DNA from: Streptomyces sp. CC228A
GTDB lineage: Bacteria; Actinomycetota; Actinomycetes; Streptomycetales; Streptomycetaceae
DNA: 64,000 bases
Assembly (NCBI RefSeq): GCF_021390935.1
Contig: NZ_JAJPUI010000001.1
Location: 558,001 to 622,000 of the forward strand
Direction: 5' to 3'
Part shown: positions 9,147-17,264 of the stretch, one piece after another
Layout: each line of letters starts with the position of its first letter
Numbering within the stretch: the first letter of the stretch is position 1
Made by a program: the position numbers and the translations under genes
Notes under the pieces: model-generated
Seen by the model: only the letters and a program-made list of their open reading frames with translations
What the model was told of the DNA's origin: nothing
The model's database searches: none

Positions 9147-11123
9147 TCAGACCTGCACGCGGCGTTCGACGACGTCGGCCAGCTTGGCCAGGGCCTCGTC
9201 CTTCGGAATGCCGTTCTCCTGCGAACCGTCGCGGTACCGGAAGGAGACCGTGCCCGCGCTCATGTCGTCGTCACCGACGATGATCATGAACGGGACCTTC
9301 AGCTTCTGGTGGTTCCTGATCTTCTTCTGCATCCGGTCCGAGGAGGCGTCCACCTCGACCCGCAGGCCCTTGCGCTTGGCCTCGGCGGCGAACTCCTGGA
9401 GGTACGCGACGTGCGCGTCGCCGACCGGGATACCGACCGCCTGGACCGGGGCCAGCCACGGGGGCATGGCGCCTGCGTAGTGCTCCAGCAGGACGGCGAA
9501 GAAACGCTCGATGGAGCCGAACAGTGCACGGTGGATCATGACCGGGCGCTGCTTGGTGCCGTCGGCTGCCGTGTACTCCAGGTCGAAACGGGCCGGGAGG
9601 TTGAAGTCGAGCTGGATGGTCGACATCTGCCAGGTCCTGCCAATGGCATCCTTCGCCTGGACGGAGATCTTCGGGCCGTAGAAAGCCGCGCCGCCCGGGT
9701 CGGGGGTGAGGGGCAGGCCCTGCTTCTCGGCGACCTTGCGCAGGGTCTCGGTGGCCTCTTCCCAGACCTCGTCGCTGCCGACGAACTTGCTCTCGTCCTT
9801 GGTGGACAGCTCCAGGTAGAAGTCGGTCAGACCGTAGTCGCGCAGCAGGTTCAGGACGAAGGTGAGCGTCTTGTCGAGCTCCTCCGCCATCTGCTCGCGG
9901 GTGCAGTAGATGTGCGCGTCGTCCTGCGTGAAGCCGCGGGCGCGGGTCAGTCCGTGCACGACGCCCGACTTCTCGTACCGGTACACCGTCCCGAACTCGA
10001 AGAGCCGCAGCGGCAGCTCGCGGTACGAGCGGCCCCGCGCGTCGAAGATCAGGTTGTGCATCGGGCAGTTCATGGGCTTGAGGTAGTAGTCCACGCCCTC
10101 ATCGAGCTGCATGGGCGGGTACATGCCGTCGGCGTACCAGTCCAGGTGGCCCGAGGTCTCGAAAAGCTTCCCCTTGGTGGCGTGCGGGGTGTAGACAAAC
10201 TCGTACCCGGCCTCTTCGTGCTTGGCCCGCGAGTAGTCCTCCATGACCCGGCGGATGATGCCGCCCCTGGGGTGGAAGACCGCGAGGCCGGAGCCGATCT
10301 GCTCGGGGATGGAGAAGAGGTCCAGCTCGCTGCCGAGCTTGCGGTGGTCGCGCTTCTCGGCCTCGGCGAGGAAGTCCAGGTGCGCCTTCAGCTCGTCCTT
10401 GGACGGCCAGGCGGTGCCGTAGATCCGCTGGAGCATGGGGTTCTTCTCGCTGCCACGCCAGTACGCGGCGGCGTTCCGCATCAGCTTGAACGCCGGGATG
10501 TTGCGGGTGGTGGGCAGGTGCGGGCCCCGGCACAGGTCCTTCCAGCACAGCTCGCCGGTCTTCGCGTCCAGGTTGTCGTAGATGGTCAGCTCGCCGGCGC
10601 CCACCTCGACGTCCGCGCCGTCCTCGCTGGAGGCGGAGCCCTTGAGGCCGATGAGCTCCAGCTTGTACGGCTCGTTCGCCAGCTCCTCGCGGGCGGCCTC
10701 GTCCGTGACGACGCGGCGGGAGAAGCGCTGGCCGCGCTTCTGGATGGCCTGCATCTGCTTCTCGATGGCCTTGAGGTCCTCGGGCGTGAACGGCTTGTCC
10801 ACGTCGAAGTCGTAGTAGAAGCCGTCCTTGACCGGCGGGCCGATGCCCAGCTTGGCCTCGGGGAAGAGCTCCTGCACGGCCTGGGCCATGACATGCGCGG
10901 TGGAGTGGCGCAGGATGGCGAGGCCGTCCTCGGAGGAGATCTCGACGCCCTCGACGGTCTCGCCGTCCGCGAGCTCGTACGCGAGGTCCTTCAGCTCGCC
11001 GTCCACGCGGGCCGCGACGACGGTGCGCTCCCCGGCGAAGAGGTCGGCGGCCGTAGTGCCCGTCGTCACCACGCGCTCTTCCCGCTCGGAATCGCGTTGG
11101 ATGATCACACGGACGTCTGACAC
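9147..11123 (-). CDS. thrS: Threonyl-tRNA synthetase
   Basis: A 658-residue class II synthetase that charges tRNA-Thr. An N-terminal TGS domain (about residues 1-65) is followed by the editing domain with [11 protein letters not shown], then the catalytic core. The three zinc ligands of the family are in place: Cys in MNCPMHN, His in QDDAHIYC and His in [10 protein letters not shown]-terminal anticodon-binding domain closes the protein with [17 protein letters not shown]. The GTG at 11123 (VSDVRVIIQ) has the Shine-Dalgarno ggagag just upstream and matches the expected length; the frame remains open for another 27 codons. No T-box-like leader could be recognised in the 114 bp upstream. Confidence 0.97.
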
Positions 11124-11237
11124 CGGTCTCTCCTGACTGAAGGGGGCAGCGCGGCCACTTCCGATGGCGCGCGCGATACGTCCTGGCATGGTACCGAGCC
11201 GCACTCCCCCTCCGCGAAACCGTTTGTCCCCGGCCCC

Positions 11238-12392
11238 TCAGTCCTCCTCGTGCGCCTTGAGCAGCCGCTCCCGCTCCGCCTCGTCGACCTGCACCGGCTC
11301 GGCCCCGCGGGCGCCCGTGAGGTGGCGGAAGCCGCTGCGGCTCTCCAGGCGGCCCGCGACCCGCAGGGGCAGCCCGGCGAGGTGGGCGCGGACGGCGGTG
11401 CGGTAGCCGTCCTCGTCGAGGGTGACGCGCAGGTGGGAGACGTCGGCGCCGGTCAGGACGCGGAGGCGGACGGTGCCGGGCCCGTGCGGGGCGGCGCGGC
11501 GGAGCCGCACGACGGTGCCGGTGACCCGTACCGGTACGGCGGGCTCGTCGCTCAGGTACCGCACGGAGGCGCGGCGCAGGGCGGGGAGGTCTCCGGGGGT
11601 GAACTCGACGGGCTCGGGGCGGGCGGCGCAGCCGCCGGGCGGGCCGGCCGCGGGGGCCCAGGCGAGGGTGACGGCGGCGCCCTGGGTGCGGTGGACGAGG
11701 GTGATGAGCGCTTCGGTGAGCTCGCGGCCGGCGCCCGCGGCGACGGCGGTGTCGAAGGCGTCGGGCCGGCCGGTGGCGCGCTCGTAGTCGACGGCGTCGC
11801 GGGTGGCGTGGAGGGCGTGGTGCAGGCGCTCGGTGAGGGGGCGGCCGGGGTCGACGGGGACGAAGGCGGTGAGGGCGCGGGCGGCGGGTGCGGTGCCGAC
11901 GAGGACGGGTTCGAGAAGGCGCCGGGCGCTGCGGCGGTGGCGGGCGCCGTGGTGGCGCGCCGGGCCGTGGACGGCGAGGGCGGCGGCGAGGAGGAGCCGG
12001 CGGGCGGCGGTGCGCAGGTGCGTGTCGGCGGTCCACGGGGCGGTGTCGGCGGTGGCCCAGGGGCCGGTGCCGCGGGGGGCGGGGTGGGTGGTGTCGCGGG
12101 TCCAGCGGATCTCGTCGGTGGGGGCGGTGAGGCCGGTGAGGATGTCGCGGGCAGTGGGGTCGGGGCAGCGGACCAGGGCGGCGACGGCTTCGGCGAGGAG
12201 GTCACCGGAGTCGGGGAAGGCGCGTCCGGCGGGCACGAGGAGGCTGACAGGTCCGGCGATGTGGCCCGGCGGCGGCGTCCAGCGGGTGCAGGGGCCGGTG
12301 CGGCTGCCGTGCGGCTGCCAGCCGTGGCGGTGGAGGAGGGCGGTGAGGACGCCCGGGTCGATGTCGGCGGGTGCGGTGGGCCGGTGGTGCAT
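11238..12392 (-). CDS. OB-fold-like partner of the DUF4365 protein
   Basis: A 384-residue protein of unknown function. The last third has alternating hydrophobic strands of an OB-fold type: VRVTGTVVRLRR, GTVRLRVLTG, HLRVTLDEDGYRTAVRAHL, LPLRVAGRLESRSGFRHL. The N terminus (LLHRHGWQPHG then GPVSLLVPAGRAF) and middle (FDTAVAAGAGRELTEALITL) resemble a family of uncharacterised bacterial proteins of about 300-380 residues that I recall sharing this C-terminal region; this is from memory. No enzyme motif is visible. Its ATG overlaps the stop codon of the DUF4365 gene by one base (TGATG), which implies translational coupling and a shared job. Composition is extremely Pro/Arg/His/Ala-rich, so structure prediction from sequence alone is limited. 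Confidence 0.75.
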   Translation of the reverse strand: MHHRPTAPADIDPGVLTALLHRHGWQPHGSRTGPCTRWTPPPGHIAGPVSLLVPAGRAFPDSGDLLAEAVAALVRCPDPTARDILTGLTAPTDEIRWTRDTTHPAPRGTGPWATADTAPWTADTHLRTAARRLLLAAALAVHGPARHHGARHRRSARRLLEPVLVGTAPAARALTAFVPVDPGRPLTERLHHALHATRDAVDYERATGRPDAFDTAVAAGAGRELTEALITLVHRTQGAAVTLAWAPAAGPPGGCAARPEPVEFTPGDLPALRRASVRYLSDEPAVPVRVTGTVVRLRRAAPHGPGTVRLRVLTGADVSHLRVTLDEDGYRTAVRAHLAGLPLRVAGRLESRSGFRHLTGARGAEPVQVDEAERERLLKAHEED

Positions 12393-12874
12393 CAGGGTCT
12401 CCCTCCCGCCCCGACCCGGGCCATGATCGCGCAGAGGGCCCGGTCGTCGAAGATCCGGGTGGTGGGGATGCGGACGGTGGTGCGGTGCCGTCCGGTGGCG
12501 GGGTGGCCGGCGAGGTTGGTCCAGTAGCAGCAGTGGCGCAGGTCGAGCCGGTCGTGGTGGGCGCGGAGCCAGTCGTCCTGGGTGCGGGGGACGAGCATGA
12601 CGACGAGGATCTTGTGGACGGCGACGGGTGTGCGGGCCAGTTTGGCGAGGTGGGCGTTGTCGAGGGTGAACGAGAAGGCGGGGCCGGGGGGTTGGGGTGG
12701 TATCTGGTAGGTGGCCTTGAGCTGGATCTTGATGGTGACCTCGTCGTCCACGGTGTGGCCGGGGGCGCTGTGGCTGACGTGCCAGTCGATGCCGTTGTCG
12801 GGGAAGGGTTGGGAGAGCGTGCAGCCGGCTGCGGCCGCGACGGCGTGGAGGTAGCCCACCTGGAGGGTCTCCAT
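12392..12874 (-). CDS. DUF4365 family protein, PD-(D/E)XK nuclease-like
   Basis: A 160-residue protein with the pattern of DUF4365: start METLQVGYLHAVAAAAG, an aspartate in NGIDWHVS (about residue 29), and the strand VTIKIQLKAT (about residues 47-56), giving the D...(E/Q)-x-K arrangement of restriction-endonuclease-like folds. The C-terminal half has WLRAHHDRLDLRHCCYW, a stretch typical of the domain. It is the first gene of a two-gene unit with the OB-like protein, coupled by TGATG. The combination of a predicted nuclease with a predicted nucleic-acid-binding partner resembles small defence or DNA-processing pairs, but no methyltransferase is nearby. Function is inferred from fold-level motifs only. 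Confidence 0.8.
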   Translation of the reverse strand: METLQVGYLHAVAAAAGCTLSQPFPDNGIDWHVSHSAPGHTVDDEVTIKIQLKATYQIPPQPPGPAFSFTLDNAHLAKLARTPVAVHKILVVMLVPRTQDDWLRAHHDRLDLRHCCYWTNLAGHPATGRHRTTVRIPTTRIFDDRALCAIMARVGAGGRP

Positions 12875-13201
12875 GCAGGCGGTGGGGGCGAGCGCGCCGC
12901 GCGCGAACGGGGCGTGGGGGCCGGTGGGGCGGGTGCGGCCGGCGGGGTGCGGCCGGTTGCCGTGGTGGGCGGGACGTGGGGGGTGGCGGGGTGTTCCCGG
13001 GCTCGGGAGCCTCCCGGGTCTGCGGGGTCGGGGTACGCCGCGAGCGCCATGGCTCTTCGTGCCTTCCGGGCTGGCCGAGCGTCAGGTGCGTTGTCTTTCA
13101 CGGTTGTTGTGACCGGACGGCGTACGGGGCAAACGGTCCGGGTATCACCGGTTCGGCAGGGGATCGGTCCATCTGCCGGTGATGTGCGAGGAGTTCGGGC
13201 T
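12875..13201. other. Divergent intergenic region upstream of the DUF4365 pair and the exonuclease
   Basis: 327 bases between divergent genes. An ATG at 13049 is in frame with the exonuclease but would add about 50 residues with no family resemblance. No hairpin or operator stood out. Promoters for both directions must lie here. Confidence 0.4.
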
Positions 13202-13930
13202 ATGGCGCACTGGTACGAGGGTCCTCTGGCCGCGTTCGACACGGAGACGACGGGTGTGGACGTCGAGCGGGACCGGATCGTCTCGGCGGCGGTGGTGGTG
13301 CAGGACGCGCCGGGCGGACGGCTGCGGGCGACGCGGTGGCTGGTGAACCCGGGTGTCCCGGTGCCCGCCGCGGCGACGGAGGTGCACGGCCTGACGGACG
13401 GCCATCTGCAGCGGTTCGGGCGGTGGCCGGCGCCGGTGATGGAGGAGATAGCGCGGCTGCTGGTGGAGCAGTGCGCGGCGGGGCGGCCGCTGGTGGTGAT
13501 GAACGCGCCGTTCGATCTGACGCTGCTGGACCGGGAGTTGCGGCGGCACCGGGCGTCGTCGCTGGCGCGGTACCTGCAGAACGTGTCGCTGTGCGTGCTG
13601 GATCCGCGGGTGCTGGACAAGCACCTGGACCGGTACCGCAAGGGGCGCCGCACGCTGACGGACCTGTGCGCGCACTACGAGGTGGTGCTGGACGGGGCCC
13701 ATGACGCGGCGCAGGACGCCGCGGCCGCGCTGGAGGTCGTACGGGCGGTGGGGCGGCGGTTCACCGAGCGGCTCGCGGAGCTGTCGGTGGCGGAGCTGCA
13801 CGCCCGGCAGGCGGTCTGGCACGCGGCGCAGGCGCGGGGGCTGCAGGCGTGGTTCGCGCGGAACGGCTCGGAGGAGGCGGTGGATCCGGCATGGCCGCTG
13901 CGGCCCGAGCAGTCGGCGGCGGCCGCGTGA
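13202..13930 (+). CDS. DnaQ-like 3'-5' exonuclease
   Basis: A 242-residue DEDDh exonuclease. Exo I is FDTETTG (about residues 12-18), Exo II is NAPFDLTLLDRE (about residues 101-112) and Exo III is HDAAQDA (about residue 168), so all four acidic residues and the catalytic histidine are present. It resembles the proofreading epsilon subunit but lacks clamp- or polymerase-binding features I could identify, so it may be a stand-alone repair or RNA-processing exonuclease. The ATG at 13202 (MAHWYEG) is chosen because the exonuclease fold starts there. It stands next to the divergent DUF4365 unit and ends before a terminator shared with tRNA-Val. Confidence 0.9.
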   Translation: MAHWYEGPLAAFDTETTGVDVERDRIVSAAVVVQDAPGGRLRATRWLVNPGVPVPAAATEVHGLTDGHLQRFGRWPAPVMEEIARLLVEQCAAGRPLVVMNAPFDLTLLDRELRRHRASSLARYLQNVSLCVLDPRVLDKHLDRYRKGRRTLTDLCAHYEVVLDGAHDAAQDAAAALEVVRAVGRRFTERLAELSVAELHARQAVWHAAQARGLQAWFARNGSEEAVDPAWPLRPEQSAAAA

Positions 13931-14012: not shown

Positions 14013-14018
14013 GGTCGG

Positions 14019-14090
14019 TGGGCGATACTGGGATCGAACCAGTGACCTCTTCGGTGTGAACGAAGCGCTCTCCCGCTGAGCTAATCGCCC
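14019..14090 (-). tRNA. tRNA-Val (CAC)
   Basis: A 72-base cloverleaf including discriminator A: acceptor GGGCGAT/ATCGCCC, anticodon stem CTTCG/CGAAG with loop TTCACAC, T-loop TTCGATC. The anticodon CAC reads GTG, a very common codon here. No CCA is encoded. An identical copy lies at 17193-17264. Confidence 0.95.
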
Positions 14091-17183: not shown

Positions 17184-17192
17184 GCCGGGTGG

Positions 17193-17264
17193 TGGGCGAT
17201 ACTGGGATCGAACCAGTGACCTCTTCGGTGTGAACGAAGCGCTCTCCCGCTGAGCTAATCGCCC
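17193..17264 (-). tRNA. tRNA-Val (CAC), second identical copy
   Basis: Base-for-base identical over 72 nt to the copy at 14019-14090: anticodon loop TTCACAC, acceptor GGGCGAT/ATCGCCC, discriminator A, no encoded CCA. The two copies flank the SRPBCC and membrane-protein genes and have different flanks. Confidence 0.95.

What the first reader, a model, noticed from the sequence alone, without database searches (positions are those of the whole stretch)
11238..12874. Two-gene unit: DUF4365 nuclease-like protein coupled to an OB-fold-like partner
The DUF4365 protein has the D...(E/Q)-x-K pattern of PD-(D/E)XK nucleases (Asp in NGIDWHVS, KIQLKAT), and its stop overlaps the partner's start (TGATG). 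The partner's C-terminal third reads as an OB-type nucleic-acid-binding fold (VRVTGTVVRLRR, then LPLRVAGRLE). I recall related proteins paired elsewhere, but I cannot cite a characterised system. A self-contained nuclease plus binding partner with no methyltransferase looks like a defence or DNA/RNA processing pair. This is my best candidate for an undescribed system in the window.
Basis: partly seen in the sequence, partly recalled or inferred. Interest (0 to 1): 0.7.

Follow-up and report, generated by a model that had tools for sequence, protein, structure and literature searches.

The report
Streptomyces core SPARDA-type nuclease–OB pair
Two overlapping genes encode a predicted DNA-cutting enzyme of the kind used by a bacterial Argonaute immune system and a partner with a single-stranded-DNA-binding-like fold; the pair is already listed as a candidate antiviral system, but here it sits, unusually, at one chromosomal place that Streptomyces relatives have inherited from a common ancestor.

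Summary
Gene A (12874..12392, minus, 160 aa) is DUF4365; gene B (12392..11238, minus, 384 aa) overlaps it (TGATG). AlphaFold models support a PD-(D/E)XK nuclease (A; closest solved folds are the DREN nuclease domains of SPARDA, with the same D/Q-x-K residues) and a C-terminal SSB-like OB fold (B).

The pair is not undescribed: both proteins match PADLOC-DB candidate 'PDC-M02' (A 1e-85, B 2.8e-151). In a B-based scan A lies directly upstream of B in 78 of 80 loci; plasmids and temperate phages carry the pair too. At least 29 of the 80 lie near DISARM, type I or III RM, Hma or related genes, and the window's own genome has a second pair inside a Druantia locus.

New here: the window's copy is not in a recognisable defence island. 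It is vertically inherited (exo|A|B|thrS in 41 of 41 copies read, from nine Streptomycetaceae genera), under purifying selection (dN/dS A 0.13, B 0.29), keeps its catalytic residues, and has been lost several times.

Best reading: a two-gene immune module in which B senses nucleic acid and releases A. Function was not tested, and no experimental paper on the pair was found in the library searched.

The parts
12392..12874 (-). Gene A: DUF4365 nuclease, DREN-like (PDC-M02A), 160 aa
   Evidence: Pfam PF14280 E 4.6e-20; PADLOC PDC-M02A E 1e-85; model pLDDT 91.9, VIA Z 12.9 over 132 residues to XauSPARDA 9qcc_M
12785..12787 (-). Codon of predicted catalytic D30 of A (GID motif)
   Evidence: invariant in 70 aligned A proteins; 60 of 60 core rows, 58 genomes; aligned with D41 of NbaSPARDA DREN, whose mutation abolishes activity (PMC12205087, passages)
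12716..12724 (-). Codons of Q51-L52-K53 of A (Q-x-K of the PD-(D/E)XK site)
   Evidence: Q51 invariant and K53 >=90% in 70; both in 60 of 60 core rows; aligned with Q60/K62 of NbaSPARDA
12390..12394 (-). TGATG junction: stop of A overlaps start of B
   Evidence: sequence
12400..12406 (-). GGAGGGA, Shine-Dalgarno-like, inside the end of A, upstream of B
   Evidence: sequence
11238..12392 (-). Gene B: OB-fold partner (PDC-M02B), 384 aa
   Evidence: PADLOC PDC-M02B E 2.8e-151; no Pfam or NCBIfam match; model pLDDT 86.6
11283..11546 (-). C-terminal OB-fold region of B (about residues 283-370)
   Evidence: secondary structure; VIA Z 9.6 over 89 residues to S. coelicolor small SSB 4dam_G; Foldseek best E 2e-3, RPA
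9147..11204 (-). thrS, threonyl-tRNA synthetase: fixed downstream neighbour, not part of the system
   Evidence: Pfam; adjacent in 30 of 30 same-genus and 11 of 11 further loci
13202..13930 (+). DnaQ-like 3'-5' exonuclease, divergent fixed upstream neighbour, probably not part of the system
   Evidence: NCBIfam NF005927 E 3.8e-89; adjacent in 30 of 30 and 11 of 11 loci; next to thrS in 6 loci without A and B

Best explanation
The pair is a two-gene sensor-effector immune module of the PADLOC candidate family PDC-M02, here as a fixed, vertically inherited chromosomal copy in Streptomycetaceae. A is a stand-alone SPARDA-type (DREN/DUF4365) PD-(D/E)XK nuclease. B carries an SSB-like OB fold at its C terminus and an unassigned N-terminal part, and acts as its partner. 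Most likely mechanism: B binds a nucleic-acid sign of invasion (for example single-stranded DNA of a replicating phage or entering plasmid), holds A inactive until then, and on binding gathers or reshapes A into an active oligomer that cuts DNA. Shown by sequence or prediction: the pairing, both folds, conserved catalytic residues, purifying selection, vertical inheritance with repeated loss, and defence association of relatives. Inferred: complex formation, the trigger, the substrate, activation by oligomerisation, and that the Streptomyces core copy still serves defence.
For: PADLOC profiles for both genes. A upstream of B in 78 of 80 B-scan loci in many phyla; A and B distances correlate across 67 loci, Mantel r 0.84. 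Relatives lie near defence genes in at least 29 of 80 loci: DISARM 13, DrmD/DrmMI 2, GmrSD-like 1, type I RM 9, Hma 2, type III RM 1, DpdE-like 1 (same kind of locus in L088). The window's own genome has a second pair between DruE and DruA of Druantia. Pairs on plasmids and in temperate phages, in an M. abscessus prophage as genes 1-2. A's fold and catalytic site match SPARDA DREN, which is inactive alone and activated by tetramerisation (PMC12205087, passages). B's OB fold resembles SSB, RPA and PriB. Core copy: exo|A|B|thrS in 30 of 30 and 11 of 11 loci, dN/dS 0.13 and 0.29, catalytic residues in 60 of 60 rows.
Against: No activity, interaction or phage phenotype was tested. The window copy has no clear defence genes around it: of seven neighbours scanned, two have weak domain-level PADLOC matches (HIT protein to ThsC2, 4.4e-9; EF-G-like protein to mad3, 1.8e-5, and mad8, 4.5e-4); the DnaQ-like exonuclease matches the generic DEDDh model and PDC-S48. 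Strong conservation and vertical inheritance are unusual for an arms-race gene and would suit a housekeeping role. A resembles Holliday-junction resolvases almost as well (Z about 11 against 12.9). The first 280 residues of B have no assigned fold. The defence-neighbour count has no matched background control, and most neighbours of the other 51 loci were not scanned. B also occurs without A: L186, L189, a Pigmentibacter plasmid, and viral contigs L206 and L207.
Confidence: 0.6

Rival explanations
1. Domesticated housekeeping function: the Streptomycetaceae core copy was recruited from a defence module to DNA repair or recombination (A resolvase-like, B an ssDNA-binding loader) and no longer acts in immunity.
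For: One fixed site beside a DnaQ-like exonuclease and thrS in 41 of 41 copies read; A about as conserved as ThrS (mean identity 0.89 against 0.90) with dN/dS 0.13; Hjc and RecU folds among A's matches; GC3 0.93 and 0.96, like thrS, exo and HIT beside it (0.94-0.98).
Against: Several independent losses, with thrS and exo left adjacent in 6 loci, so it is dispensable; no LexA-like box found between the genes and the exonuclease in 30 loci with a recalled pattern; same pair architecture and catalytic residues as embedded copies.
Confidence: 0.22
2. Toxin-antitoxin or addiction pair: A is a toxic nuclease, B its antitoxin; the pair stabilises plasmids, prophages and islands.
For: Small overlapping operon on plasmids and phages. 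B is kept without A in L186 and L189 (short A remnants), in the Pigmentibacter plasmid, where the gene upstream of B looks like a transposase fragment, and in viral contigs L206/L207, where B is itself cut short; A without B was not seen in the 41 core copies or in 28 further family loci.
Against: B (384 aa) is far larger than typical antitoxins (general knowledge) and carries an OB fold; embedding in RM, DISARM, Hma and Druantia loci; a fixed chromosomal core copy. The scans used B as query, so A without B could not be seen there.
Confidence: 0.12
3. Type IV-like restriction pair: A cuts modified or foreign DNA recognised by B.
For: GmrSD-like neighbours in L087, L088, L113, L114 and L115; PD-(D/E)XK nuclease without its own methyltransferase.
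Against: No modified-base-binding domain is recognisable in B (no Pfam match); the OB fold points to single strands.
Confidence: 0.1

Closest known systems
PDC-M02 (PADLOC-DB 2.0.0 candidate two-gene system)
   Same: Both genes match full length at E 1e-85 and 2.8e-151; adjacent, as PADLOC's A and B names imply
   Different: The window copy is a vertically inherited core locus, not embedded in another defence system; no experimental test of PDC-M02 was found in the library searched
SPARDA (short prokaryotic Argonaute with DREN-APAZ)
   Same: A has the DREN/DUF4365 nuclease fold and the D/Q-x-K catalytic residues
   Different: A has no APAZ domain; the partner B has an OB fold and shows no Argonaute match
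Archaeal Hjc and other Holliday-junction resolvases
   Same: PD-(D/E)XK fold of similar size, Z about 11
   Different: A belongs to DUF4365 by sequence and comes with partner B
Bacterial SSB, PriB and RPA OB-fold proteins
   Same: C-terminal about 85 residues of B share the fold (Z up to 9.6)
   Different: About 280 further N-terminal residues; no credible match to a solved sequence
Modules embedded in DISARM, Druantia, Hma or RM loci
   Same: Relatives of the pair sit in such loci
   Different: The window copy does not

Membership tests
PDC-M02 (PADLOC candidate) | First gene matches PDC-M02A profile | tested here: met
   PDLC04276 E 1e-85
PDC-M02 (PADLOC candidate) | Second gene matches PDC-M02B profile | tested here: met
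   PDLC04317 E 2.8e-151, residues 1-383
PDC-M02 (PADLOC candidate) | The two genes adjacent | tested here: met
   1-nt overlap
PDC-M02 (PADLOC candidate) | Protects against phage | not testable with these tools
   needs phage challenge
SPARDA | DREN/DUF4365 nuclease domain with D/Q-x-K site | tested here: met
SPARDA | Nuclease fused to an APAZ domain | tested here: not met
   A is 160 aa and residues 1-158 align with the DREN domain
SPARDA | Short Argonaute (MID-PIWI) partner | tested here: inconclusive
   no Pfam match in B at E<=1, no credible solved-sequence match; the fold of B residues 1-280 was not searched alone
Restriction-modification | Cognate methyltransferase in the locus | tested here: not met
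   none among the eight neighbouring genes scanned with Pfam and/or PADLOC
Toxin-antitoxin | First protein toxic, second neutralises it | not testable with these tools
   only indirect: B without A seen, A without B not seen in the family loci read
OB-fold ssDNA-binding protein | OB fold | tested here: met
   predicted model only:
OB-fold ssDNA-binding protein | Binds single-stranded DNA | not testable with these tools
   needs a binding assay

The most novel reading that the evidence does not exclude
An Argonaute-free relative of SPARDA in which an SSB-like OB-fold protein replaces the RNA-guided sensor: B recognises replication-type single-stranded DNA directly and assembles A into an active DREN oligomer. 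In Streptomycetaceae this module was fixed in the family's ancestor and kept as a core innate-immune (or genome-integrity) checkpoint beside thrS, while relatives elsewhere spread as a portable module inserted into other defence systems.
Probability: 0.3. Interest if true: 0.75.

Novelty: new member of a known kind. Interest (0 to 1): 0.5.

Why it matters
If right, it gives a minimal two-protein system for studying how DREN nucleases, known from SPARDA, are switched on without Argonaute. It would also be an unusual case of an immune-type nuclease kept as a near-core gene of a whole bacterial family, which can be tested in ordinary laboratory Streptomyces strains. And it would warn that PADLOC calls of PDC-M02 in Streptomyces may mark an inherited locus rather than an acquired defence system.

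Tried and rejected
Housekeeping neighbours as functional partners: the exonuclease and thrS stay next to each other without A and B in 6 loci, so they are read as bystanders.

Recent horizontal transfer of the window copy: rejected. Synteny over nine genera; A and B distances follow ThrS (Mantel r 0.64 and 0.57; exonuclease 0.69); GC3 like the neighbours; a thrS tree needs about six changes (5-6 in bootstrap trees, at least 4 forced by well-supported branches), read as one gain and several losses (bootstrap not fully settled; rows chosen by me).

LexA-type control: no box found in 30 intergenic regions with a pattern recalled from memory. Sigma-70 promoter and terminator scan: nothing. bldA TTA codons: none in A or B.

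A different effector in place of A in L186 and L189: not supported. Short remnants of A lie before B (read by eye), so A was deleted; DUF1828, DUF1829 and DUF6978 genes follow B there.

A private change of the GVSANLCEAL motif in the core B copies: not claimed, because the scan behind the comparison used that motif as its search pattern, and accessory copies L083-L085 and L092 differ from it too.

B in the phage collection: P0002 gave no match; more distant B proteins matched four records of two phage kinds. Plasmids: P0002 none, L088 B 14 records, 8 of which I fetched. Viral contigs: five loci, A found in three; L206 and L207 have B without A. Phylum-wide search with profile A1: no match outside the window's genus in 396 genomes (four candidates per genome scored; relatives in other genera do exist). 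Of eight large neighbours scanned, one (L165) gave no PADLOC match at 1e-30. In one search my label 'HsdM?' was put on the wrong cluster (a recombinase); those labels were not used, and the real HsdM cluster is shown there as c23. BFVD fold search: one match at E<=0.001, the full-length Leptospira phage LE1 protein, whose gene pair is.

Full report
What is there. On the minus strand, A (12874..12392, 160 aa) and B (12392..11238, 384 aa) overlap by one base. A is DUF4365. B has no Pfam or NCBIfam family. Both match PADLOC-DB candidate PDC-M02, A at 1e-85 and B at 2.8e-151. The window's genus includes Streptomyces: same-genus genome G029 and the named Streptomyces sp. HB132 locus L117 share a contig length of 178,566.

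A is a DREN-type nuclease by prediction. Model pLDDT 91.9. The best Foldseek and VIA matches are the nuclease domains of SPARDA complexes (Z 12.9, rmsd 3.2, 132 residues, 9qcc_M), followed by Holliday-junction resolvases at Z about 11. A profile of 70 A proteins finds one solved sequence at E<=1, the NbaSPARDA DREN-APAZ, at a weak E of 0.74, but with GID and Q-x-K in register. [quoted passage not shown] D30 and Q51 are invariant in the 70. D26, D30, Q51 and K53 are present in 60 of 60 core rows, which are the best matches of two searches and stand for 58 genomes, as two genomes occur twice.

B has a C-terminal OB fold by prediction: residues 287-366, pLDDT 86.6 overall, nearest to SSB, PriB and RPA (Z up to 9.6; Foldseek best E 2e-3). 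The fold of its first 280 residues stays open.

The two genes nearly always go together. A B-based scan of genome contigs gave 80 loci kept of 150 relatives found, all containing the search pattern. A lies directly upstream in 78 of 80; 70 of 77 overlap by 4 or 1 nt (start choice favours overlap). A and B distances correlate (r 0.84, 67 loci). The two exceptions, L186 and L189, are type I RM loci in which A is reduced to remnants. Of 14 plasmid records with a B match I read 8: A is upstream in 7, annotated in Gluconobacter, Entomospira, Phaeobacter and Streptomyces and as open frames in Methylobacterium, Tistrella and Caballeronia; in Pigmentibacter the upstream gene looks like a transposase fragment. 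Tistrella also figures among the 80 (L167). Temperate phages carry the pair: M. abscessus prophage prophi102-2 genes 1-2 and Leptospira phage LE1 gp38-gp37, with DUF4365 in the first gene of each. In five viral contigs A was found in three; the other two (L206, L207, B at the same length and score) have a shortened B and no A.

Relatives sit in defence loci. By clustering of neighbours within 10 kb and scans of representatives, 29 of 80 loci have defence genes: 13 DISARM (DrmA or DrmB cluster), 2 DrmD/DrmMI, 1 GmrSD-like, 9 type I RM, 2 Hma, 1 type III RM, 1 DpdE-like. Only representatives were scanned, so this is a lower bound for the systems looked for, and there is no background control. 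In L088 the order is GmrSD-like, A, B, DrmD, DrmMI. In the window's own genome a second, diverged pair (contig 19) lies between DruE and, on the other strand, DruA, with DruD upstream. Five Actinoplanes-type loci, L119, L120, L130, L133 and L140, share another setting next to an ABC-transporter operon.

The window copy is different. In 30 of 30 same-genus loci (the window's own and the best 29 matches) and 11 of 11 further loci, 10 of them from eight other genera of the family, the order is exo, A, B, thrS. B has a match in 81 of 91 same-genus genomes including the window's own (my count of rows; G032 and G044 are not intact orthologues, and G088 keeps a shortened B without A and exo). A has a match in 206 of 297 family genomes; by my reading of the rows 13 of these are weak, E above 1e-60. 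Of 13 genomes looked at again (11 without a B match, one of them, G091, from another family, plus G032 and G044), 11 hold a thrS orthologue, and in 6 of them thrS and the exonuclease lie next to each other without A and B; in the other 5 the exonuclease was not within the stretch fetched. Mean pairwise identity in 30 genomes: A 0.89, B 0.78, exonuclease 0.83, ThrS 0.90; median dN/dS 0.13, 0.29, 0.20, 0.21 (Nei-Gojobori style, codon bias not corrected). The thrS tree, drawn with midpoint root, has pair-bearing lineages near the base of the family and needs about six changes for presence and absence. So the pair was probably in the family's ancestor, was inherited vertically and was lost several times. 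Seven further window neighbours show no clear defence genes.

Literature. No paper in the held library contains 'PDC-M02'. Ten papers contain DUF4365 (listing); I read passages of two of them, PMC10810196 and PMC12205087, both on SPARDA-type systems. No paper has DISARM together with DUF4365. [quoted passage not shown] The preprint itself is not held and was not read, so a test of PDC-M02 there cannot be ruled out. Of PMC13092281 I saw passages; DUF4365 does not occur in its main text.

Reading. I take the family as a portable nuclease plus OB-sensor module and the window copy as its fixed inherited form. Defence is the likelier role of the family; for the core copy a domesticated DNA-maintenance role remains a serious rival. 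Activation of A through B by assembly on nucleic acid is inferred from the SPARDA parallel and the OB fold only.

Noticed in passing
L204 (G000 contig 19, 183000-202900): The window's own genome has a second A-B pair inside a Druantia type I-like locus (DruD, DruE, A, B, DruA), with MzaB-like and PDC-S18 genes next to it.
   Followed up: partly
L186 11043-12253; L189 11248-11925: Two type I RM loci keep B but have lost A; DUF6978 and DUF1828/DUF1829 genes (L186) or a DUF1828 gene (L189) follow B.
   Followed up: partly
L119, L120, L130, L133, L140: Actinoplanes and relatives carry the pair at another shared setting next to an ABC-transporter operon, perhaps a second vertical fixation.
   Followed up: no
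L210 398-2160; L211 3459-5137: The pair is carried by temperate phages; in M. abscessus prophage prophi102-2 it is genes 1-2 at the very end of the element.
   Followed up: partly
L206 1426-2433; L207 955-1962: Two viral contigs hold a shortened B without A; the reading frame upstream in L207 encodes a pentapeptide-repeat-like protein (the name is my reading).
   Followed up: partly
window 13128-13149: A block (GGTGATACCCGGACCGTTTGCC) between A and the exonuclease, largely conserved in 30 loci including the window; possibly a shared divergent promoter or operator.
   Followed up: no
L093 6593-7513 (G088): Decaying core copy: A and exo not found and B shortened at its start, thrS still adjacent.
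   Followed up: partly
L169 2269-14882: The pair lies between two DrmMI-like methyltransferase genes with a DpdE-like helicase upstream.
   Followed up: no
window 14017-14090 and 17190-17264: Two tRNA-Val (CAC) genes about 3 kb apart on the minus strand; the long open frames between them were not analysed.
   Followed up: no
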